DNA of 59,530 nucleotides from a virus, in IMG/VR virus record IMGVR_UViG_3300017739_000010, positions 1 to 59,530 of that record. One strand, 5' to 3'. The position numbers were made by a program, and so were the translations under genes. How positions within the stretch are numbered: the first letter of the stretch is position 1; the number at the start of each line of letters is the position of its first letter. Shown here piece after piece: positions 5,925 through 21,745 of this stretch. The notes beneath the pieces are model-generated. The model was not told where the DNA came from. It was given only the letters and a program-made list of their open reading frames with translations, and made no database searches.

Positions 5925-5936
5925 GATATATATAAA
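5925..5936 (+). promoter_or_regulatory. Putative late promoter (variant motif)
   Basis: GATATATATAAA in the 54-base gap before the structural gene at 5954. It is a variant of the GATATATAATA motif that recurs in four other gaps. T4 late promoters consist mainly of a TATAAATA-type -10 element, so this is a plausible functional analogue. Assignment is from position and recurrence only. Confidence 0.5.
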
Positions 5937-10044: not shown

Positions 10045-11427
10045 ATGGCAGATTTTAAAACACAACAAGATTTTAGAAAGGGTTCGATACTTCGTAAGAT
10101 AAACGAAGATCCAACCTATCTTAGCTTCTTTCTAGTATTTGATACTATAAACAGAGAAGAGTCTCCACTGTTTGCAGGTCCTGCTAAAGAGTATTTACTT
10201 AATGTATTAAATACAACATATTCTCAAAAACATGCAGATGCTTTAGATAATTTTCAAAAAGTACTCTTGAAGATTAACAAGGAGTTACCTTGGTTTTGGC
10301 AAACATTATCTGGCGTAGATGCTGCAATGCAATATAAAGGATTAGCAGATCCATGGTGGGGTGCAGAATCTCCAACATTAGAAATAGAATGTTTAGAGGA
10401 GAATGTTGAGTTAACAGCAATAGGTCTAATGGACTTATATAAAAGAGCATGTTATGATTTCGTAAGGTGGGTAGAAGTTATTCCTAGAGATTTAAGACGT
10501 TTTAGAATGCAGGTTTGGGTTAGTGAGGTTAGAAGATTTCAACAAACTACTGGAGCTAAAGATCTAGGATTCTTTGATAATCCTGATACAGCTACAGGTA
10601 ATGGTGGAACTCAAAAGAAAATTAATGAAGATCTTAGTTTAGAAGCGAAGCCTTTTATTCAACTACAGTTCTCACACTGTGAGTTTGATATAGATGCTAT
10701 TGCTGCAATGTTTGCAGATCTTGGTAAAAACCCTGAATTGAAGAAACCTAAGATTGCAATCAGATGGGATCACGTAGAACAGATTAATCAGCAATTAGGT
10801 GCTAACCTAGTCGTTGAAGAAACTGACTCTCCGTTGACACAAGCTGCCATAGGACAAACTGGTGAATTAGGACAATATTCTCCATTTGATGCAACTCAAA
10901 ACCCACAAACACAAGATAAGAAGTCTCCGTTTATTAAAAGACCAGATATTGATTTAAAATCTATCGGAGAACAACTTAAGAAAAGAACATTAGGTAAAGC
11001 TCAAGACGCTGCTGAGAATTTTATAGGCGGTATCCAAGGTAGAGTACAAAGTAACGTTGATTCTCTATCGGGTCAGATAAATGGATTAGACAATGTACAT
11101 GGTCTACCTACTGGATTAGCAGCAAGTTTATTAAACCAAGCAGAAGATTCTCTTTTAAGTAAATTATTATTAGGTAATGTACACGGCCTTCAAGGAGGTT
11201 CAACGCTACTAGATGCTGTCCAATCTGGTTCTATAAATGCTATAGGAAATCAGTTAGGTGGTTTATTTGGCGGAGCAAATAACGCCGGCGGTGGCGGAGG
11301 TATAAATGAAAACATACATCCTGATGGAGTTGATTCATCACCAGATGGATTCTTAAATCAAAGAATACATCCTACTGGTGTAGACTCATCACCTGATGGA
11401 GGATTAAACCAGAACATACATGAATAA
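10045..11427 (+). CDS. Putative central tail/baseplate protein with C-terminal 17-residue repeats
   Basis: A 460-residue protein. The first 280 residues look globular and conserved in style (WFWQTLSG, DLYKRACYDFVRWVEVIPRDLRRFRMQVWV, FIQLQFSHCEFDID), suggesting a tube-adaptor or initiator protein. The last 180 residues are Gly/Asn/Leu-rich and end in two copies of a 17-residue unit with core IHPxGVDSSPDG plus a partial third. The core recalls the IHPTGV spike-tip motif of the next gene. It overlaps the gp5-like gene by 8 bases. No specific T4 counterpart assigned. Confidence 0.5.
   Translation: MADFKTQQDFRKGSILRKINEDPTYLSFFLVFDTINREESPLFAGPAKEYLLNVLNTTYSQKHADALDNFQKVLLKINKELPWFWQTLSGVDAAMQYKGLADPWWGAESPTLEIECLEENVELTAIGLMDLYKRACYDFVRWVEVIPRDLRRFRMQVWVSEVRRFQQTTGAKDLGFFDNPDTATGNGGTQKKINEDLSLEAKPFIQLQFSHCEFDIDAIAAMFADLGKNPELKKPKIAIRWDHVEQINQQLGANLVVEETDSPLTQAAIGQTGELGQYSPFDATQNPQTQDKKSPFIKRPDIDLKSIGEQLKKRTLGKAQDAAENFIGGIQGRVQSNVDSLSGQINGLDNVHGLPTGLAASLLNQAEDSLLSKLLLGNVHGLQGGSTLLDAVQSGSINAIGNQLGGLFGGANNAGGGGGINENIHPDGVDSSPDGFLNQRIHPTGVDSSPDGGLNQNIHE
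11311..11424 (+). repeat. 51-bp tandem coding repeat
   Basis: Two 51-base units (11311-11361 and 11362-11412) and a 12-base partial third copy, encoding a 17-residue repeat with core IHP[DT]GVDSSPDG at the C-terminus of the preceding gene. The copies differ by several substitutions. Confidence 0.85.
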
Positions 11428-12136
11428 CAGTGAATTATTTAGAGACAATTTACGTGATGCTCATTGGTTAGGAGAGGTTGTTGATATTGAAGACCCTCTT
11501 CTTCAAGGTAGAGCAAGAGTAAAAGTATATGGTAAATTTGACAAGCTACCGAATGATGCTATTCCGTGGGCTACTCCACAAAATAGAGAAACTCCTGGTA
11601 TGCATGTTGTACCTAGAGTTGGAGATATTGTTGCTGTAAGATTTGACAATGGTAATATCTACCATCCGGAATATTGGTTTCAAGTAGACCAAAACGTAGA
11701 TCTTAAGGCAGATATTTTAGAAGCATCCGGAGAACCACATAATGTAATTAGTTTAGTTTACGATGCAGAACGTAATGTAAGAATTTATCATTCTCCTGAA
11801 GATGGTTTAGTTATTACTAGAGGTGAAGGCGCAAAAGAAAGACCTATGCTTCAAATTGATGAAGAAGGGTTTATTAAGATTACTACAGATGCAAAAGTAT
11901 TTTTAGATTGTGGAGATATATTTGTATCTAACACTGGAGAGCCTGGAGCAGATGAGACTGAACCCGCGGTAAGAGGTCAATCTCTACAAGATTGGTTACA
12001 GAAATTATTAGATGATTATGCAGCCCATATCCATCCAACTGGTGTTGGGCCGTCAGGACCTCCAATGCCACCTACTCCATCAACAGTGGGTCAATTATCA
12101 AGTACACATATTAATTATCAACAAAGAAATAAGTAA
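11420..12136 (+). CDS. 5: Baseplate hub spike protein, gp5-like, without lysozyme domain
   Basis: A 238-residue central spike. Residues about 16-88 form an OB-fold of the T4 gp5 type: GEVVDIEDPLLQGRARVKVYG, AIPWATP, then VGDIVAVRFDNGN. Residues 115-172 are short strands suited to a beta-prism. The C-terminus carries H203-I-H205-PTGVGPSGPP; HxH motifs bind iron at the tip of other phage membrane-piercing spikes. The T4 gp5 lysozyme domain is absent, so peptidoglycan cutting must come from another protein or not occur. It starts 8 bases inside the upstream gene and ends 2 bases before the next. Confidence 0.82.
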   Translation: MNNSELFRDNLRDAHWLGEVVDIEDPLLQGRARVKVYGKFDKLPNDAIPWATPQNRETPGMHVVPRVGDIVAVRFDNGNIYHPEYWFQVDQNVDLKADILEASGEPHNVISLVYDAERNVRIYHSPEDGLVITRGEGAKERPMLQIDEEGFIKITTDAKVFLDCGDIFVSNTGEPGADETEPAVRGQSLQDWLQKLLDDYAAHIHPTGVGPSGPPMPPTPSTVGQLSSTHINYQQRNK

Positions 12137-12138
12137 TC

Positions 12139-14079
12139 ATGCCAGCGAATTGGGCCAAATTTATTCCTGACTTAACCAATACTTTATTAAGTCAGAAGTT
12201 TACGAAACCAGGAGGGGCAGCAATTTCTTATGAACCTCCAAAGGCAGGATCTAACAATATGTTGGGTGAAACTGTGTCTGGTCAAAAATCCATTTTAAGT
12301 GGAGGTCTTACTGAGGTTGGTAATCCTGCGAATGCAGCTTTAGCAACTAATCCTGCAACCATGGTTAATGCTAACGATGTTAATCCACTCTCTGGTAGAT
12401 ATGACTTTGGAAAACAAGTAGCTCAACATTATTTAGATGCTGTAAAAAATATGGCACAAACTCATGTGGGAGAATTACATATTAATAATGGTGCTGCTGA
12501 GTTGCTTTTAAAAGAAGGGTATGGTATTGCGTTCGAAAGACTTTTAAGAGAAGGTGATATACCACTACAAGATCAATATGATGAAGATGGTAATTTAATT
12601 GAAATGGGTAAAGAGTCCCATCCTGCTTATGCAGATTTTTGCCCAGAAGTAGAAGAACCAGACGCTGAAGCCATAGCTGAACTTGAAAAGAAAAACAATG
12701 AAGCTTTCAACAAGTTTGCCTCTGGAGAAAACGTACAAAACTATAATTTATATAAATTTAAGTTCTATCAATTTCCATGTCTATCAGGTGCAGAAACTCA
12801 AGAGGAATTAGAAGTTGTTTTTGCAACTAGAATTTTAATGGGATATAAGTTCATGAACTCAGCAAATGACAGATGGGATTATTTTGTTTGGGCTTGCCAT
12901 TTAGGTAAAGAGAATTACAATACAAACAATAACAATAATAATGCTTTTAACAATAGTAGTTCTTTATATAAAAACATCAATAGTAAAGCTAGAAATGATA
13001 TTGAAGATGCTGAATATGACTACAAAGAATTGGCTGATAAAGTTTCGTTCCTAGTAAAGACTGCTATTATGGCAGCACATCCACAAAGAGATACTGATGG
13101 TAATTACACAGGATCTAATTCTTCCTTAGAGAAAAGAATTAAGAGGGCTCCAGAAAAAGAAATTGAATACCCTACATTAAAGGACGAATCCGGAAAAGAT
13201 ATTACTCCTGATTTTTGTCCTATTAATAGATATAAGATTCAAGTTGCTAGAGATTTTGAAGGTGATACAAGTTTAAAACCTAGAATATTAACATCTAATG
13301 TTATTGCAACATTTACATACTATCCGAATAAAAGAACTGGAGGAACTCCCTATGTTATTAATAATGCAAAGGCTTTATTTAGTACTAATACAACAAATAA
13401 TGTCAAGTATGAAAAGACTTCAAATTGGGTAAAATCAAAATATGAAGTTAATGAGTGGAAAAAGAAGTGGAGAAAATGTCCACCTGAAGGTAAATTAAAA
13501 CAAGCAGCATACGCGCAAGATTCTACTAAAGCATTTTTAGACTTAGGTTGGGATGGTAGCGGATGGAATGGTGACGAGGCTGGAACTCAATATAAATATG
13601 AATATCATAGAGTTCTTTGTGCTATTAAAGCTGCTGAAAAATGTGAAGAGCCTATGACTGAAGTAGGACATCCATGGGATCCTAGTGGTACTACACCAGG
13701 AGGGAAATCTTATTCTGGAGATCCTTATATGCAGATGGCTAGAGTTACAATTGCATATTGGTATGCGTGTATTGTTAAACCATTTAAACCAACTCCTTCT
13801 GCACCACCGGCCCTAATTCCAGCGCCCCTACAAGGAATTTATATTCCAATTTATTATGGAAGTGCAAATAGACTAGCAAATAATTTAAGAAGAGCTTGGA
13901 ATACAGGAAAGTCTTTTGCAACTCCTGGAACACAACAACCAGCTTCAAATGCGACGGCAACTGCAGTAGCCGGAGCTTATGCTCTACATTTATTAGAATT
14001 TAAGTTGCTGTATCTTGGTGGTATTCCAACTCCTTCTGGTCCAGTTCCTATGGTAGGTTTTGTACCTATTGTATTTTAA
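12139..14079 (+). CDS. Large virion-associated protein, unknown
   Basis: A 646-residue protein directly after the spike gene. Visible features: a Gly/Ala/Asn-rich N-terminus, a conserved-looking stretch with YNLYKFKFYQFPC and ATRILMGYKF (about 205-240), an asparagine run near residue 260, and a hydrophobic, proline-rich C-terminal 130 residues (PSAPPALIPAPLQGIYIPIYYG). The last part could insert in or contact a membrane. No family recognised. Its stop overlaps the stop of the convergent minus-strand gene by 4 bases. Confidence 0.6.
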   Translation: MPANWAKFIPDLTNTLLSQKFTKPGGAAISYEPPKAGSNNMLGETVSGQKSILSGGLTEVGNPANAALATNPATMVNANDVNPLSGRYDFGKQVAQHYLDAVKNMAQTHVGELHINNGAAELLLKEGYGIAFERLLREGDIPLQDQYDEDGNLIEMGKESHPAYADFCPEVEEPDAEAIAELEKKNNEAFNKFASGENVQNYNLYKFKFYQFPCLSGAETQEELEVVFATRILMGYKFMNSANDRWDYFVWACHLGKENYNTNNNNNNAFNNSSSLYKNINSKARNDIEDAEYDYKELADKVSFLVKTAIMAAHPQRDTDGNYTGSNSSLEKRIKRAPEKEIEYPTLKDESGKDITPDFCPINRYKIQVARDFEGDTSLKPRILTSNVIATFTYYPNKRTGGTPYVINNAKALFSTNTTNNVKYEKTSNWVKSKYEVNEWKKKWRKCPPEGKLKQAAYAQDSTKAFLDLGWDGSGWNGDEAGTQYKYEYHRVLCAIKAAEKCEEPMTEVGHPWDPSGTTPGGKSYSGDPYMQMARVTIAYWYACIVKPFKPTPSAPPALIPAPLQGIYIPIYYGSANRLANNLRRAWNTGKSFATPGTQQPASNATATAVAGAYALHLLEFKLLYLGGIPTPSGPVPMVGFVPIVF

Positions 14080-14486
14080 CCCCAGTCTTTTTCGAAAGTA
14101 TACCAATGGTCTGCAGACGCACAGTCGCGAAGAGCATCAAGAACCATATAAACCTTTTCATCAATAGTTAGATTGTCTAGAACGGCGCCTACGTGCATCT
14201 CAATTAGTTCATCATTGTCAAGGTAAGAAGATACGTGTTTAGCAATTCCGGTAACTAATCGGTAAGCGTTGTCTTCCACGTTGTTATACCTAATACCTGA
14301 ATGATAGTTAGTATAAGTGTCTACTTCAGACGCTTGTTTAATCATTTTGTCCCAGAGTTTATCGCCGAGTAGATCTCGAACTTCTTGACAGATAGATTGA
14401 ATTTGATCTTTGTGTTTGAGAACGGCTTGGTAGCCGTAGCCACCAACACCGTTGCATTCTATTTTCTTATAGTTAAATTGTTCCAT
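14076..14486 (-). CDS. Hypothetical protein in minus-strand pair
   Basis: A 136-residue, mostly helical acidic protein (MEQFNYKKIECNGVGG onward). It is second in a two-gene minus-strand unit; its start codon touches the stop of the upstream gene (shared base 14486), so the two are translationally coupled. Transcription likely starts at the promoter-like element at 14968-15037. The opposite orientation to the surrounding late genes suggests different timing, perhaps early expression. No family recognised. Confidence 0.65.
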   Translation of the reverse strand: MEQFNYKKIECNGVGGYGYQAVLKHKDQIQSICQEVRDLLGDKLWDKMIKQASEVDTYTNYHSGIRYNNVEDNAYRLVTGIAKHVSSYLDNDELIEMHVGAVLDNLTIDEKVYMVLDALRDCASADHWYTFEKDWG

Positions 14487-14959
14487 TATGCTTCTACTAA
14501 AGTTATGTTTTCAAAAGAGTCTTTTAACTCTCCGTAAGCCAGGCCAGCCCAACTCTTAGAACCAATAGATTTCCAGTGGTTGTAGTCTGCCATGTTAGGG
14601 AAAGTTGAATGAATATCTCCAACAGTTAGGTTTTCAATAACCGCCTTGTCGATGTGTAAGAATTTGTTACCTTTCATGTTAAGAACAGAAATGTAAAAGT
14701 CAGAACCAGGAAGTTGAATTTCAACGTTGAAGAGTTTGTTCTTGTCATAGCTAAACAAGTTACAAAGATAACCTTCACCTGAGTTGATAGTTAAGAATCC
14801 AGCGACACATTTAGAAATGCTTCTGTATTTATACTTAGTCTTGTTCCAATCTAAGCCAAGATCTTTAACGTAAAATTTATGCATTTTACCTTTAATATTT
14901 TGTTCGACTGTGAATGAAGTTCCCAAGATGTCGTTAGTGTGTTTTTTAATATAAGCCAT
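14486..14959 (-). CDS. Hypothetical protein, first in minus-strand pair
   Basis: A 157-residue protein (MAYIKKHTNDILGTSF onward), beta-rich in the middle (YLCNLFSYDKNKLFNVEIQLPG) with a helical end. The ATG at 14959 lies just downstream of the 70-bp element shared with the other minus-strand pair at 46 kb, which fixes the start. No motif recognised. The common promoter suggests co-regulation with the genes at 45.7-46.2 kb. Confidence 0.65.
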   Translation of the reverse strand: MAYIKKHTNDILGTSFTVEQNIKGKMHKFYVKDLGLDWNKTKYKYRSISKCVAGFLTINSGEGYLCNLFSYDKNKLFNVEIQLPGSDFYISVLNMKGNKFLHIDKAVIENLTVGDIHSTFPNMADYNHWKSIGSKSWAGLAYGELKDSFENITLVEA

Positions 14960-14967
14960 AGTTTTTG

Positions 14968-15037
14968 TTTGTTTTTAATTACAGTACTAATATACGAAAA
15001 ATATCTGACATAAAAAAATATTTCGGCAACTATTTTG
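14968..15037 (-). promoter_or_regulatory. Minus-strand promoter-like element, copy 1 of 2
   Basis: A 70-base block 66/70 identical to 46164-46233, both immediately upstream of minus-strand genes. Read on the minus strand it contains TTGCC, then a T-rich stretch with TATTTTTCG (one change from the Bacteroidetes -7 consensus TAnnTTTG), then TATATTAGTACTGTAATTAA leading to the start. The four mismatches cluster between TTGCC and the T-run, as expected for an unconserved spacer. A second TGGCAA lies at 15045. Confidence 0.75.
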
Positions 15038-15130
15038 TCCAAAGTGGCAAAGTTTTTTGTGATACATATAACAACCTAATCAAACACTCTTATTATCTTT
15101 AAAAAACTACTGTTTATATCAGCTCTGTTT

Positions 15131-15595
15131 TTGTTTTGTCTTCAACTAGCGTATGATTTCAAACCTAAAAAGTCTAAAGTTCCAACCTTTAGAAAGGTGG
15201 CTACTATTACAGAAGTTTTTGATAATGAAAGTACAATGAGGTTTATACAAGATTCTATTTTATTCACACCTCCTAGAATTCCACCATTAGTCAAAACCAA
15301 AATGGGACCTTTACATCCTAGGATAATTGGACTAACAACAGAGGTTGCTGAAGGTGTTTATCTTATTCAGCTAAACAGCATATATTCGGTCAAAGTTTTA
15401 CAAAGAACTTTATTCCATGAATTAGCACATGTATATCAATTTGAAAGAGGGATGCTACAGGATTTTGGAGATATAATAATTTGGAATGGTGTGATGTATG
15501 GTTGGGGTCGACCTTGGGGTAAAAGACCATGGGAGATACATGCTGAAAAACTAGTTGAAGATCTTTTTGTGCCTACTTATGAAGATGATATATAA
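15131..15595 (+). CDS. HExxH zinc-metallopeptidase-like protein, possibly secreted
   Basis: At least 154 residues from a TTG at 15131. H96-E-L-A-H100 is a zincin active-site motif, and glutamates at 135/139 (WEIHAEKLVEDL) could be the third ligand. The open frame continues upstream to 15080 without ATG, GTG or a nearer TTG, and encodes KKLLFISALFLFCLQLA, a basic-hydrophobic stretch that looks like a signal peptide or membrane anchor. The true start may thus be a rare codon such as ATT at 15092. It stands next to a second HExxH protein. A role in cell-envelope processing at lysis is possible but unproven. Confidence 0.65.
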   Translation: MFCLQLAYDFKPKKSKVPTFRKVATITEVFDNESTMRFIQDSILFTPPRIPPLVKTKMGPLHPRIIGLTTEVAEGVYLIQLNSIYSVKVLQRTLFHELAHVYQFERGMLQDFGDIIIWNGVMYGWGRPWGKRPWEIHAEKLVEDLFVPTYEDDI

Positions 15596-15600
15596 ATGGT

Positions 15601-15969
15601 ATGAGAACACCTATCATTAAATATAACGATAAGTTTTTAAATAGTATCAGTTGGTTCATGAGGATCGGCGGCATTACTCTTTGGCCATTTGTGGTTTTAA
15701 GAGAAAGGTACAACTCAAGTCAATACTGGAGGAGAGTCGCTGAAAGAATTATTAACCATGAGTCTATTCATATCAAACAACAGGAAGAACTTTTAATTAT
15801 ACCATTTTATATTTTGTATGTAACAGAATGGTTCTTTAAATTGTTCTTTTATGGTAAAGATTCTTACTACAATATCTCCTTTGAAAGAGAAGCTTATACG
15901 AACGATGAAAATCTAGACTACTTAAAATCTAGAAAGAAATACGCTTGGATAAAAAGAATTTTTAAGTAG
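15601..15969 (+). CDS. Membrane-associated HExxH protein
   Basis: A 122-residue protein with H53-E-S-I-H57 followed by a hydrophobic segment (LLIIPFYILYVTEWFFKLFFYG, about 64-85) and then SFEREAY with E95 and E97 as possible zinc ligands. I know this layout (NHE.IH...QQ.ELL.IPFYILY...SFEREAY) from small uncharacterised Bacteroidetes proteins, which supports the host assignment. It begins 5 bases after the first HExxH gene; the two probably form a pair. Activity is not established. Confidence 0.7.
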   Translation: MRTPIIKYNDKFLNSISWFMRIGGITLWPFVVLRERYNSSQYWRRVAERIINHESIHIKQQEELLIIPFYILYVTEWFFKLFFYGKDSYYNISFEREAYTNDENLDYLKSRKKYAWIKRIFK

Positions 15970-15979
15970 ATATATAATA
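15969..15979 (+). promoter_or_regulatory. Putative late promoter
   Basis: GATATATAATA, identical to the motifs at 31113, 46298 and 50734, in the gap before the S1-like gene (46 bases from motif end to ATG). A small ATGTT/AACAT hairpin directly follows and would lie near the 5' end of the transcript. Confidence 0.6.
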
Positions 15980-16024
15980 TGTTACTAACATGGTATACAT
16001 ATAAACCTTTTAAATAAAATATAA

Positions 16025-17311
16025 ATGTCAGCAAAGAGAAGACGAATCGGAGATTCAACCACAACAATTCCAGTAGAAGTAAAAGCTACTAACACACAAA
16101 CGCAGGTAATAACTAAACCTCAAGTTAAAGAAGAAAAACCTGCAGACCCATACGCAGAATTTTATGATGAAAACGGAGAGTTCCTTTGGGAGAAGTATGA
16201 AGGTACTTGTCCAACTCAAAACAGAACTCCAAATCCTCATGTGAAAACACAAGACGGAGATATAGTATTTTCTAGAGAACCTTATGCTCAAGAACTATAT
16301 GATAAAATGAAGCAATATGGGCAAGAGATTAAACCAAAGGTACATGAAGGTGAAATACATGAAGGTATAATCCATGGGATTGACCATAACTATATTACTG
16401 TAGATATAGGTTATAGAGAGTTGGTATATGTAACTTTCGGTAAAGAATCTACGGAAGTTCAACAATCTTCAGTTGGCGATGAGACTGCTGTTTTAATTAC
16501 AGACACTAAAGGCACTTTATCAGGAACTATTACAGGTGGTGTTAAACATAAGACTTTTACAGATCTTAGGAATGCAATCGATGAGGGTAGAACTGCTTGG
16601 ATAGGTCTAGTTAAAAATATGATTGACAAGGGTGGTTATGTTGTAACAATCCAAGGTATAGATTGCTTTATGCCTGGTTCGTTAGCAGGTATTAATAAAT
16701 TATCTGACTTTGGCTCTATTGTTGGAGAAGAGATTTATGTGGTACCGGTTAGCTTCTCTGCAGATAGAGGTACAATTGTAGTTTCACATAGAAAATACTT
16801 ACAAGCGCTTATTCCTTCTGAGATTGAAAAGTTAAAACAAACTATTGAAGAGGAGAGAGAAGGTAATGTAACTGGAACTGCAAAATACGGAGTATTTGTA
16901 GAATTTAACCAATGTCTTACTGGTATGATTCATAATAATGATTTAGATGAAACAACTTTAGCTAAATTTAAGGCTAGGGAGATAAACCCAGGAGACTCAA
17001 TTAAATTTAAAGTAAAAGATATAGTAAGCAATAACAAGATTACATTGACACAAAAAGATGTGGTTGACATTAACCCTTGGATTAACATTAGCAAGAGGTA
17101 TGCAATACCATCTGTAGTGGAGGCAGTCGTTAAGTCTAGAAAAGACTATGGTTTATTCATTAATATAGAGGATGGTGTAACTGGATTGTTACATATTAGT
17201 GAGATTGGTGAAGAAACTATGTCAGTTTTTAATCCAGGTGATAAAATTACAGTTCAAATCACCAGAATTGATGAGGCAACGATGAAGGTATTCTTAAAAA
17301 TGCCCCAATAA
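16025..17311 (+). CDS. Ribosomal protein S1-like RNA-binding protein with four S1 repeats
   Basis: A 428-residue protein. After a charged 100-residue leader, four S1 OB-fold repeats can be traced: about 108-172 (EGIIHGIDHNYITVDIG), 187-255, 278-343 (EGNVTGTAKYGVFVEF) and 358-426 (EAVVKSRKDYGLFINIEDGVTGLLH). Repeats 3 and 4 have the canonical YG-F-V and G-T-G-L/M-H patterns. Cellular S1 has up to six repeats and brings mRNA to the 30S subunit. Bacteroidetes initiate without Shine-Dalgarno pairing, so a phage S1 could favour phage mRNAs; that is inference. It has its own promoter-like motif and a hairpin after the stop. Confidence 0.88.
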   Translation: MSAKRRRIGDSTTTIPVEVKATNTQTQVITKPQVKEEKPADPYAEFYDENGEFLWEKYEGTCPTQNRTPNPHVKTQDGDIVFSREPYAQELYDKMKQYGQEIKPKVHEGEIHEGIIHGIDHNYITVDIGYRELVYVTFGKESTEVQQSSVGDETAVLITDTKGTLSGTITGGVKHKTFTDLRNAIDEGRTAWIGLVKNMIDKGGYVVTIQGIDCFMPGSLAGINKLSDFGSIVGEEIYVVPVSFSADRGTIVVSHRKYLQALIPSEIEKLKQTIEEEREGNVTGTAKYGVFVEFNQCLTGMIHNNDLDETTLAKFKAREINPGDSIKFKVKDIVSNNKITLTQKDVVDINPWINISKRYAIPSVVEAVVKSRKDYGLFINIEDGVTGLLHISEIGEETMSVFNPGDKITVQITRIDEATMKVFLKMPQ

Positions 17312-17362: not shown

Positions 17363-18676
17363 ATGCAAAAACTAAACAAAGATTCTAGTAGAATTTCGAT
17401 ACTCAATGGAAGTCAAATTGGTATCGAGTTTGAATTTTACTCTAACTTAGAGCTGGAGGAGACTCATAAGGCTTTATCTAAACTACTTAATCGTAAGATT
17501 AGATTAGAAGATAAAGCACATTCTGACTTTCAACCTAGTTCCGAAGTTTTCAAGATGGAACCAGATATGTCTGGCGGTAAAGGCTTGATTGAGTTAGTTA
17601 CTGGCGCAATGCCATATCGAGACGCTCGATTAGTTATTATCAAAATGTTGAATTGGATTAAAGAGAATGGTTATACAACAGACCGTGCATCAATTCACTT
17701 AAATATGTCTTTTAACCCAGACTATTTAGAAGATACAATGATGATTGCTAAAATGAATATTTTAAAATTTATTTTAGAGTTTGATGAGAAGAGGATCTAT
17801 AAGTTCTTCCCTAATAGAAAGAATTCCACTTATGCAAAATCAATTAAATGGGTTATGCCTAAGCATGAGGCTTTTTATTACAATGAAAATCTAATTAGTT
17901 CAGATAACTTTACTTTTGCTAATACTAAATACTATGGTATTAATTTTGAGAAAGCTTTGAAAAATTATTTAGAGTTTAGATATATTGGTGGTAAAGATTA
18001 TGAGAAAAGAGGGGATGATATTTTACATTTAGCAGAAATGTTTATCATGTCAGTATGGAAATCTTGTTTTAACCCTAGGTTTACTCCTGAGAATAAAATA
18101 GAGATGAAGAGGATTTTACAGAAGAATGCACCTCTTATGGAGATGTTAAAAGACCATACCGCCGTAAATAAGCATTGGCCTAAGATACATATACTGGTAG
18201 ACTTACAAGACCACCCATCTGTCGTAGAAGTACAGTGGAATAGATTTAAGACAAAAGTTTTAGATCTTTTGGCAAATGGCGGAATGGAAGAAGGCATAAT
18301 TAATTATGATTCTGACTATGGGTCGGTTCAAGTTAAAGACGGTAAATTTAAGGTAGCTTATTTGCTGGACGGATTTGAATTTGTAAATTGTGAGTTGGCA
18401 GGCAACATTGAGAATAGTGGAATTTATGGATGTAAAATCACTGGAGCTCAAGTGCTGAGATCTCAACTCTACCAAGGTACAGAAGCTATGGACTCAAAAA
18501 TTGAGTCTTCTTTTGTTCACGGAAGTTGTACCTTAAAAAATTGTTACGTTTTCGGAAGAGACGGTATTTTTAAAGGTAAAATGGAAGGAGGTATTTTTAG
18601 AGAGGGTTATGTAGGTCCACATGCAAGATTCTCTAAAGAGACCGAAGTTATTGTTAGTAAAAAAATTAAAACATAA
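17363..18676 (+). CDS. Amidoligase-like protein with C-terminal beta-helix-like region
   Basis: A 437-residue protein. The start G20-I-E22-F-E24 and the later E77 (GLIELVTGAMP) and H112 (SIHLNMSF) follow the layout of the amidoligase family of the glutamine-synthetase-like fold, which forms amide bonds using ATP. Residues about 300-437 are rich in short strand-turn units (FEFVNCELAGNIENSGIYG, SSFVHGSC, GGIFREG), suggestive of a right-handed beta-helix like pentapeptide repeats. Known relatives modify proteins, peptides or cell-wall compounds; the substrate here is unknown. It lies between the S1-like gene and virion genes, 2 bases ahead of the next. Confidence 0.55.
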   Translation: MQKLNKDSSRISILNGSQIGIEFEFYSNLELEETHKALSKLLNRKIRLEDKAHSDFQPSSEVFKMEPDMSGGKGLIELVTGAMPYRDARLVIIKMLNWIKENGYTTDRASIHLNMSFNPDYLEDTMMIAKMNILKFILEFDEKRIYKFFPNRKNSTYAKSIKWVMPKHEAFYYNENLISSDNFTFANTKYYGINFEKALKNYLEFRYIGGKDYEKRGDDILHLAEMFIMSVWKSCFNPRFTPENKIEMKRILQKNAPLMEMLKDHTAVNKHWPKIHILVDLQDHPSVVEVQWNRFKTKVLDLLANGGMEEGIINYDSDYGSVQVKDGKFKVAYLLDGFEFVNCELAGNIENSGIYGCKITGAQVLRSQLYQGTEAMDSKIESSFVHGSCTLKNCYVFGRDGIFKGKMEGGIFREGYVGPHARFSKETEVIVSKKIKT

Positions 18677-19542: not shown

Positions 19543-19899
19543 ATGGATTTTTACATTAAATATATAGGTGACCCGAATTACAACGCGACACAACTACAAA
19601 ACAACGGTGAGATTGAGCAATTAATTACTCAAATCGAAACTATTCTATTCACTAGAAAAACTGATGTTTTAGGTTCTGCTCAATTTGGTTGTAATTTAGA
19701 AGACTTGGTATACTCTTTGAATCAAAATGAGTATAATATCAAGCAAGAAATCAACAATCAGATTAACTCTTATTGTCCGCTTGCTACTAAATATCAAGTT
19801 GCCACCGATGTAAAATTCTTCAAAGGTGAAGTTAGAGATATTGCATATATTGATATTACCATTGATAGTAAGTATTTAGTACAAATAAACCTTAGATAA
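19543..19899 (+). CDS. 25: Baseplate wedge protein gp25
   Basis: A 118-residue protein of the gp25/W family, which forms the core of the wedge and initiates the sheath. The family signature is visible: a helix (IEQLITQIETILFTRKTDVLG) followed by FGCNLEDLVYSLN with an Asn-x-x-Glu-Asp pattern, then a helix IKQEINNQI and a two-strand end. Length is near the T4 protein (132). It is followed by the gp6-like gene as expected for contractile tail modules. TATATAAATG overlaps the start codon; too close for a promoter of this gene. Confidence 0.88.
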   Translation: MDFYIKYIGDPNYNATQLQNNGEIEQLITQIETILFTRKTDVLGSAQFGCNLEDLVYSLNQNEYNIKQEINNQINSYCPLATKYQVATDVKFFKGEVRDIAYIDITIDSKYLVQINLR

Positions 19900-19915: not shown

Positions 19916-21745
19916 ATGGCAGAGTTAAAATTTTTAGAGACGGTAAGAGTTAGTGCAGATCAAATCAAAGCTGACACGAGAACTTTTATTAGTAGAGTTT
20001 ACAAAAGAGCTAACACTCTTTTTACTGAAGCAAGTCCTTTTGCTCAGATTATTTCTGTATTCTCAGAGCTGTATGAGCTCATTATGTTCTATATAGAGGA
20101 TGCTGTAGTAGAACAAAACATTTACACTGCTCAACAAGCAGAGTCTATATATGGTATGTCAAGATTGACTGGCCATGATGCAACCAGAGGTTTTGCTGCA
20201 ACAGGGGAGATAGAATTTAGATGGAAGCCAGGTGCAGACCTTAGTGTAATCGCTGGAACAGGATTAAATATAGATCCAAGAGCAGAGTTAGTATGTGAAC
20301 TTAACAGTATGACATATACATTATTATCCTCTAAAGATAGATTTAGATTAGAGAAATCTAATATGACTAAAATAACTGCTGCTGTTATTCAAGGTAAATA
20401 TGAAAGACAAACTTTAACAGGTACAGGAGAAAAGCTTCAGTCTTTTAATGTACAAACAAAGAAATTATCAGATCACTCTAAAGTTAGTGTTTCTGTAAAT
20501 GGTGAAAAATGGACAAAACATAATTCACTTTATGATTTATTAAATAACGAGAAAGGTTATCTATGTAAAACTGGTATTTCCGGAGGAATTGATGTTTATT
20601 TCGGTAATGGTGCTTTCGGTGCTATTCCAGCTTTAGGTTCTACTATTGAAGTAGAATATGTAAACCATGATGGTTTTATGGGTAACATAGATGATGGTAG
20701 AGATATTACTTTTAAATGGCAAGCAGAAGGAACTGATTCCTTAGGAGGTGAACATGACTTAAATGAATTTTTAGATGTTACATGTACTTCATCTCCAAAA
20801 ATGGGTGCTGATAGAGAGTCAACAGACTTTACAAAAATTATGACCCCTCTAGCTTCAAAATCTTTTGTTTTAGCAACTCCAGATAATTATGAGTATTTCC
20901 TATCTAGATATGGATTATTCTCGTATATAGATGCTTACAATACAACATCGGACGAGTATTTAGATGATGATAATGTTATCTATATTTTTGCAGTTCCAGA
21001 TGTAAAAAAGAAATTAGCTTCAGGTCAAGATTACTTTTCAATTCCGGAGAATGAAATGTTCTTCGACCAGAATGAATATGATAAAATGTCACAAGTGATT
21101 CAAGATAGTGGCCAACAAATGGTTACAACTGAAGTTGTGTTTGTAAAACCACAAGTTAGAAAATACAGTATGGATATTAACATAAGGTATTTTGAAGGTT
21201 TTAGTAAAGAAGAGATTTTTAATGATGTCAGATCTGCAGTAAGTGATTACATGTTAAATGTAACAAGAAGAGACAAACTGCCTAAATCCGATATTGTCTA
21301 TATTCTAGAAGAAATAGAAGGTATTGATGCTGTTAATGTCAGATTCATTTCAGAAACTGAAGAAACAGCTAGAAGACTTGGTTACTATGAGTCTGTTACA
21401 ACAACAGTTCAACCACAGGAGCCAGTAGTCTTAGAAGATATAGGTAACGGTAAACAAAAATACATCTTTTTCAAAAAAGTAGAAGAAGTTAAAGTCGTTG
21501 ACGTTGACGCTTCTACTGTGATACCGTACACCGTAGCTGGTTTAGACGAGTGGGGTGATATAATCATGGAAAAAGAAGAAGTTGCAGTCTTTAGGGGCGG
21601 ATGGCAAGATCGTGATGGTGACGAGATTGTTGATAAAGCTCTAATTAATGCTGAAGCAGCATTATCTGTAAACTTTGACCCAACGCCGGTTACTAGGACT
21701 ATTTATACTAGAGTACAGGCTGGAAATAGAAAAGCCTTAAAATAA
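19916..21745 (+). CDS. 6: Baseplate wedge protein gp6-like (baseplate J family)
   Basis: A 609-residue protein. The N-terminal helical part (residues 1-100) ends in SIYGMSRLTGHDATRG, followed by a beta domain with PGADLSVIAGTGLNI, matching the baseplate J/gp6 pattern in which a helix is followed by G-x-x-R-x-x-A-x-x-A-x-G and a strand domain. The region FVKPQVRKYSMDINIRYFEGFSKEEIFNDVRSAVSDYM...SDIVYILEEIEGIDAV is a typical gp6/J C-terminal module. gp6 forms the ring that holds the wedges together. The next gene begins one base before its stop. Confidence 0.85.
   Translation: MAELKFLETVRVSADQIKADTRTFISRVYKRANTLFTEASPFAQIISVFSELYELIMFYIEDAVVEQNIYTAQQAESIYGMSRLTGHDATRGFAATGEIEFRWKPGADLSVIAGTGLNIDPRAELVCELNSMTYTLLSSKDRFRLEKSNMTKITAAVIQGKYERQTLTGTGEKLQSFNVQTKKLSDHSKVSVSVNGEKWTKHNSLYDLLNNEKGYLCKTGISGGIDVYFGNGAFGAIPALGSTIEVEYVNHDGFMGNIDDGRDITFKWQAEGTDSLGGEHDLNEFLDVTCTSSPKMGADRESTDFTKIMTPLASKSFVLATPDNYEYFLSRYGLFSYIDAYNTTSDEYLDDDNVIYIFAVPDVKKKLASGQDYFSIPENEMFFDQNEYDKMSQVIQDSGQQMVTTEVVFVKPQVRKYSMDINIRYFEGFSKEEIFNDVRSAVSDYMLNVTRRDKLPKSDIVYILEEIEGIDAVNVRFISETEETARRLGYYESVTTTVQPQEPVVLEDIGNGKQKYIFFKKVEEVKVVDVDASTVIPYTVAGLDEWGDIIMEKEEVAVFRGGWQDRDGDEIVDKALINAEAALSVNFDPTPVTRTIYTRVQAGNRKALK

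What the first reader, a model, noticed from the sequence alone, without database searches (positions are those of the whole stretch)
16025..17311. Phage-encoded four-repeat S1-like protein
A translation factor-like protein with its own promoter-like motif. Viruses carrying ribosomal proteins are known, but a multi-repeat S1 is unusual. In a host that initiates without Shine-Dalgarno pairing, S1-mRNA contacts may dominate start selection, so this could redirect host ribosomes to phage mRNA.
Basis: partly seen in the sequence, partly recalled or inferred. Interest (0 to 1): 0.62.

Follow-up and report, generated by a model that had tools for sequence, protein, structure and literature searches.

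The report
Phage copy of ribosomal protein S1
A large virus of marine Bacteroidetes-type bacteria carries, as a fixed part of its virion-gene cluster, its own shortened version of the ribosomal protein that feeds mRNA to the ribosome, probably to steer the host's ribosomes towards viral messages late in infection; similar genes were already known in huge phages, but this one is a clear case and its relatives also carry the partner protein bS21.

Summary
The ORF at 16025-17311 encodes 428 aa with four S1 (OB-fold) repeats. They match domains 1-4 of ribosomal protein bS1 end to end in sequence and in the predicted model. The gene is no stray acquisition: about 490 viral contigs hold a relative, it is under purifying selection (dN/dS ~0.1), and it always sits between baseplate-hub and neck/baseplate genes, even in a 462-kb huge phage at ~35% identity. 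All phage copies form one clade, distant from every cellular bS1 sampled. The N-terminus carries an F-x-W motif typical of Bacteroidia bS1; RNA-binding Tyr/Phe/His of domains 3 and 4 are invariant. A conserved promoter-like 16-mer lies upstream. Window genes show no Shine-Dalgarno enrichment. Relatives reaching far enough upstream also encode bS21 (5 of 5), as do 4 of 7 S1-bearing huge or Lak phages. Best reading: a phage bS1 paralogue, probably late-expressed, that docks on the host 30S and favours phage mRNA; docking and selectivity are inferred. Rp-S1 in huge phages is already published (Al-Shayeb 2020): a new member of a known kind.

The parts
16025..17311 (+). Phage bS1-like protein, 428 aa, four S1/OB repeats
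15969..15984 (+). Conserved promoter-like 16-mer GATATATAATATGTTA, 40 nt upstream of the S1 start; S1-specific extension of a GATATATA box seen upstream of other genes
16025..16141 (+). Disordered N-terminal tail (aa 1-39) with a conserved basic K/R-x-R-I cluster at its tip
16181..16201 (+). F-x-W-x-x-Y-E motif (aa 53-59), shared with Bacteroidia bS1 N-termini
16277..16318 (+). Amphipathic helix EPYAQELYDKMKQY (aa 85-98), in the place of the uS2-docking helix of bS1
16340..16528 (+). S1 domain 1 (about aa 106-168); Arg131 at the position of E. coli Lys43 that enters the uS2 zinc pocket
   Evidence: contact from PMC10123108
16586..16798 (+). S1 domain 2 (about aa 188-258), with invariant GGY...CFMPGSLAG
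16850..17059 (+). S1 domain 3 (about aa 276-345); RNA-binding Tyr288, Phe291, His303 invariant
17093..17305 (+). S1 domain 4 (about aa 357-427); Tyr375, Phe378, His390 invariant
11420..12136 (+). Baseplate-hub OB protein (Phage_base_V), conserved upstream neighbour (30 of 30 relatives with coverage)
12139..14079 (+). Unknown 646-aa protein, conserved upstream neighbour (32 of 32)
17363..18676 (+). Unknown 437-aa protein, conserved immediate downstream neighbour (41 of 41, and in huge phage LR756500)
18679..19521 (+). Head-tail adaptor Ad2-like (38 of 38)
19543..19899 (+). gp25-like baseplate wedge (37 of 37)
19916..21745 (+). gp6-like baseplate wedge (33 of 33)

Best explanation
The gene encodes a phage-adapted paralogue of ribosomal protein bS1, reduced to the four domains that in E. 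coli dock on the 30S (domains 1-2) and hold mRNA (domains 3-4). It is probably made late, from its own promoter inside the virion-gene cluster of a jumbo-type phage of Bacteroidia. It most likely binds the host 30S at uS2 through its N-terminal helix and domain 1, displaces or supplements the loosely bound host bS1, and brings A/U-rich, SD-less phage messages to the start site. It may act together with the phage bS21 that relatives encode, since bS21 touches bS1 domain 1 on the ribosome. Shown here: family, domain order, conservation, selection, synteny, promoter-like motif, lack of SD enrichment, bS21 in relatives. Inferred: late expression, ribosome docking, displacement of host bS1, preference for phage mRNA, and the presence of bS21 in this particular phage (its expected position lies outside the window).
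For: Colinear match to bS1 domains 1-4. Best structural matches are bS1 in 30S mRNA-delivery complexes (Z 13.3/13.2, Foldseek E 2.5e-25), with the N-terminal helix aligned to the start of bS1. RNA-binding Y/F/H invariant in domains 3 and 4; Lys43 position kept as invariant Arg131 (contacts from PMC10123108). F-x-W motif shared with Bacteroidia bS1. Purifying selection, dN/dS 0.08-0.11. Fixed place in the virion cluster in every relative with coverage and in LR756500. Conserved S1 promoter-like motif. No SD enrichment. bS21 in 5 of 5 relatives that reach its locus and in 4 of 7 S1-bearing huge or Lak phages; five of only six phage records matching this bS21 also carry S1. In F. johnsoniae added bS1 doubled the initiation amplitude on an SD-less mRNA (PMC9976891). 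Phage bS21 and bL12 can enter E. coli ribosomes (PMC6375957). bS21 of Bacteroidetes phages is expressed with late structural genes (PMC9723584).
Against: No experiment or expression data. Phage copies sit on a very long branch away from cellular bS1, so function may have shifted. Residue-by-residue agreement of the uS2-docking helix with E. coli F5/F9 is not clear, and F79 is not kept. The domain-1 stretch equivalent to E. coli 70-90 is rewritten. Lak phages lack domain 4 and the Lys43-equivalent basic residue. pTM is 0.46, so the relative placement of domains is uncertain. LR756500 and the Lak phages have no bS21.
Confidence: 0.6

Rival explanations
1. It acts off the ribosome: an RNA chaperone or partner of a nuclease or polymerase, as host S1 does for Q-beta replicase and T4 RegB, protecting, processing or decaying mRNA.
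For: S1 domains 3-4 bind RNA without the ribosome. Host S1 has such roles in Q-beta and T4 infection (PMC13157829). Structural hits include S1 in Q-beta replicase complexes (4q7j, 4r71). The long branch suggests changed constraints.
Against: The ribosome-anchoring part (helix, domain 1 with Arg131, Bacteroidia-type F-x-W) is kept and under constraint, and bS21 is often co-encoded.
Confidence: 0.2
2. It is a decoy or inhibitor: it occupies the bS1 site on uS2 and lowers host translation, without recruiting phage mRNA.
For: It lacks domains 5-6 of the six-domain Bacteroidetes bS1. A phage bS21 placed in E. coli ribosomes cut translation to about 5% (PMC6375957).
Against: RNA-binding residues of domains 3 and 4 are invariant, which a pure decoy would not need. 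The gene sits among virion genes, when phage translation is needed. Four-domain bS1 is normal in Firmicutes and Actinobacteria (PMC6705787).
Confidence: 0.1
3. It is a virion component, carried in or near the baseplate and delivered with the DNA, acting at once on entry.
For: Invariant position between baseplate-hub and neck genes. Disordered basic N-terminal tail.
Against: No virion-protein fold; every domain is bS1-like. Non-structural genes do occur inside such clusters.
Confidence: 0.08

Closest known systems
Ribosomal protein bS1 (rpsA; NCBIfam PRK06299/TIGR00717)
   Same: Order and fold of domains 1-4, RNA-binding Y/F/H in domains 3-4, basic residue at the uS2 zinc-pocket position, N-terminal helix; F-x-W motif as in Bacteroidia bS1.
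   Different: About 22-25% identical to Bacteroidia bS1 over the alignment, no domains 5-6, about 20-residue phage-specific insert and basic disordered tail, scores below curated bS1 cut-offs, separate long-branch clade.
rpS1-like proteins of huge phages (Al-Shayeb 2020; LR756500-504, LR745206) and Prevotella Lak phages
   Same: Same clade (100/100); LR756500 has the same gene order; several also encode bS21.
   Different: Only 28-42% identical to the window protein over 49-71% of its length; Lak proteins lack domain 4.
bS21-encoding Bacteroidetes phages (Chen 2022, PMC9723584)
   Same: Same host group and the idea of swapping an initiation-platform protein late in infection; aromatic residue at bS21 position 54 kept.
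   Different: That study concerns bS21; here bS1 is the subject. In the relatives bS21 lies on the same strand as S1, in a DnaJ/PhoH/RNase HII block, not on the reverse strand among terminase and capsid genes.
PhiMa05 cyanophage bS1 (PMC13157829)
   Same: Phage-encoded bS1.
   Different: Cyanobacterial-lineage origin with five other ribosomal proteins; different phage group.

Membership tests
Ribosomal protein bS1 | Several S1 repeats colinear with bS1, closer to bS1 than to nuclease S1 domains | tested here: met
Ribosomal protein bS1 | Scores above the curated equivalog cut-off | tested here: not met
   161 bits against a cut-off of 524; all 60 sampled Bacteroidia bS1 also miss the TIGR00717 cut-off
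Ribosomal protein bS1 | Groups inside cellular bS1 in a tree | tested here: not met
   All phage copies are one clade apart from sampled cellular bS1 (100/100), on a long branch
Ribosomal protein bS1 | uS2-docking contacts (N-terminal aromatic helix, Lys43, Phe79) | tested here: inconclusive
   Helix present with invariant Tyr87/Tyr92; Lys43 position is invariant Arg131; Phe79 not kept
Ribosomal protein bS1 | Conserved RNA-binding Tyr/Phe/His in domains 3 and 4 | tested here: met
   Tyr288/Phe291/His303 and Tyr375/Phe378/His390 invariant in 19 phage proteins and equal to E. coli
Ribosomal protein bS1 | Physical association with the 30S subunit and role in initiation | not testable with these tools
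   needs biochemistry
Phage rpS1-like proteins of Bacteroidota huge phages | Same clade as the published huge-phage S1 proteins | tested here: met
   100/100 support; shared synteny with LR756500
Phage rpS1-like proteins of Bacteroidota huge phages | Phage genes without Shine-Dalgarno motifs | tested here: met
   3 of 39 starts against 1.7 expected
S1 domains of nucleases (PNPase, RNase R) | Catalytic nuclease domains beside the S1 domain, and closest S1 match to these | tested here: not met
   No such domain; PNPase 2.9e-16 and RNase R 8.9e-8 against bS1 3.1e-47

The most novel reading that the evidence does not exclude
This phage lineage re-equips the host's mRNA-entry platform with a matched pair, its own bS1 and its own bS21, giving ribosomes dedicated to SD-less phage late messages. 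In that reading the conserved phage-specific N-terminal region of S1 and A/U-rich phage leaders are the two sides of the selectivity.
Probability: 0.25. Interest if true: 0.8.

Novelty: new member of a known kind. Interest (0 to 1): 0.5.

Why it matters
Al-Shayeb and colleagues wrote that 'true' phage rpS1 is hard to confirm because S1 domains are everywhere. This family meets much of that test: four bS1 domains in order, host-type N-terminus, strong selection, fixed synteny, and bS21 in the genomes of relatives. It makes the idea of phage-specialised ribosomes testable in a bacterial group where bS21 blocks SD pairing and bS1 promotes SD-less initiation in vitro.

Tried and rejected
The idea that the 16-mer is a general phage promoter in its full length was rejected: only the GATATATA core recurs. 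A classical Bacteroidetes -33/-7 promoter was not found upstream. PHROGs has no hit for the protein. The hypothesis that bS21 is missing from many relatives was rejected: contigs without a hit end short of its locus, shown directly for G002 by gene order and for the others by contig ends. Several fecal, Listeria, Enterococcus and Acinetobacter 'phage' records look like bacterial DNA and were used only as outgroups. The tree cannot name the cellular donor: the phage branch is long.

Full report
What is there. Pfam finds S1 domains at E=4.2e-21, two of them significant on their own. phmmer aligns residues 105-426 in one run with residues 17-346 of E. coli bS1, domains 1 to 4. NCBIfam's best family is 30S ribosomal protein S1 (3.1e-47), while PNPase and RNase R come at 3e-16 and 9e-8. 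The match stays below the curated cut-off, as expected for a divergent protein lacking domains 5-6.

Structure. AlphaFold2 with 45 sequences gives four barrels, a helix at 88-98 and a disordered first 39 residues (mean pLDDT 74, pTM 0.46). The best PDB matches are bS1 chains in 30S mRNA-delivery complexes: 9guv_B Z 13.3 and 9gut_B Z 13.2 over more than 300 residues, Foldseek E 2.5e-25. The high rmsd reflects flexible domain placement. In chains holding domains 1-2 only, the model aligns from its helix (residues 88-92) with bS1 residues 1-3.

A core phage gene. IMG/VR holds about 490 contigs with a relative; the best 80 are 61-100% identical, nearly all over the whole length. Pairwise dN/dS is 0.08-0.11. 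In 41 distinct loci the gene order is fixed: hub OB protein, a 646-aa protein, a variable cargo segment, S1, a 437-aa protein, Ad2-like adaptor, gp25-like, gp6-like; every core neighbour is found wherever the contig covers it. The 462-kb huge phage LR756500 keeps hub, S1, the 437-aa protein, adaptor, gp25 and gp6 in that order at about 34-39% identity. In the window the four genes at 14076-15969 are cargo found in only a minority of relatives.

Phylogeny. In a tree of 56 proteins over domains 1-4, the window family, the huge-phage proteins and the Lak proteins form one clade (100/100), separate from Bacteroidia, other Bacteroidota, gammaproteobacterial and Firmicutes bS1. The branch is very long, so the donor cannot be named and long-branch effects are possible. 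A single old origin in large Bacteroidota phages is the simplest reading.

Host-type features. 153 of 155 phage proteins carry F-x-W-x-x-[YF]-[ED] before domain 1, and MAFFT aligns F53 and W55 with the same residues in all 13 flavobacterial bS1 rows. Flavobacterial bS1 have the longer motif (72 of 74, in a partly biased sample). A class-wide sample has the core [F/I][D/N]W in 20 of 21. The two Lak proteins have the longer motif; about 28 phylum-wide bS1, inferred to be outside the class because all 60 class members score below the TIGR00717 cut-off, do not. Tail-gene matches are to Flavobacterium, Tenacibaculum, Chryseobacterium, Sphingomonas and Prevotella phages. The host is therefore probably a Bacteroidia member; this is inference.

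Ribosome and RNA contacts. In E. coli, bS1 docks on uS2 through Phe5 and Phe9 of its N-terminal helix, Lys43 in the zinc pocket and Phe79, and bS21 touches domain 1 (PMC10123108). The phage proteins keep a helix with invariant Tyr87, Ala88, Gln89 and Tyr92 and an invariant Arg131 at the Lys43 position, but not Phe79, and the helix register is ambiguous. The RNA-binding Tyr/Phe/His of domains 3 and 4 are invariant. So RNA binding is well supported and uS2 docking is plausible but unproven.

Translation setting. Of 39 window genes three have an SD-like motif, against 1.7 expected. Bacteroidia ribosomes hide their anti-SD in a pocket of bS21, bS18 and bS6, and added bS1 doubled initiation amplitude on an SD-less mRNA (PMC9976891).

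bS21. Five long relatives encode bS21 with its key Tyr kept, 25-30 kb upstream of S1 in a conserved DnaJ / bS21 / PhoH / RNase HII block (block names read from the sequences, not from a family search). These are the five contigs that reach the locus; the others examined end short of it, shown directly for G002. The window itself starts only 16 kb upstream of S1, so its own bS21 would lie outside. Four of seven S1-bearing huge or Lak phages also encode bS21, and of six phage records that match this bS21, five carry S1; these records are related, so they are not independent.

Promoter. GATATATAWTATGTTA occurs once per viral locus, just upstream of S1, in nearly all loci, at about 19-40 nt from the ATG, while the rest of the leader varies. 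The core GATATATA has 10 copies in the window, all on the + strand, 7 of them intergenic and 12-56 nt before a gene (shuffles give 4.7 on average, 3 of 100 reach 10). This fits a phage promoter box; a sigma factor or polymerase was not identified.

Known or new. Huge phages with up to six S1 domains and few SD motifs were reported, with the same hijacking idea and the remark that true rpS1 is hard to confirm (PMC7162821). PhiMa05 has bS1 (PMC13157829). Viral proteins named 30S ribosomal protein S1 exist in BFVD. What is added here is a large, well-bounded marine family with fixed synteny in the virion cluster, its own conserved promoter-like motif, host-type N-terminus, and bS21 in relatives. 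That is a new member of a known kind. The mechanism (30S docking and selection of phage mRNA) is inference at about 0.6.

Noticed in passing
window GATATATA at 5925, 15587, 15969, 17329, 24684, 31113, 39354, 44512, 46298, 50734: A GATATATA box, always on the coding strand and mostly just upstream of genes, looks like a phage-wide promoter. In relatives L321-L323 it lies only 12 nt before the ATG of several small 'MKHIK' proteins, which would give very short or no leaders.
   Followed up: partly
window 14076-15969: Variable cargo segment between the conserved 646-aa gene and S1: two minus-strand genes and two peptidase-like genes (HExxH-type motifs), present in only a minority of relatives.
   Followed up: partly
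L321:7429-10456, L322:8224-11246, L323:8453-11819: Conserved block with DnaJ-like, bS21, PhoH-like and RNase HII-like genes about 25-30 kb upstream of S1 in relatives.
   Followed up: partly
L321-L323, many ORFs: A family of small and medium proteins sharing the start 'MKHIKxFExF' recurs many times in these phages, as if a common N-terminal tag; LR756500 (L168) has a similar 'MKYIxEYEEF' series.
   Followed up: no
window 17363-18676: Invariant downstream neighbour of S1, 437 aa with a GxEFEF-like start; no Pfam hit, weak PHROG 33777 match.
   Followed up: no
L169:9965-11074 and L177 (Prevotella Lak phages): The Lak S1-like proteins have lost domain 4 but keep the N-terminal 'KTKNNEKVFSHESYAQELYD' stretch that is nearly identical in the marine phages.
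   Followed up: partly
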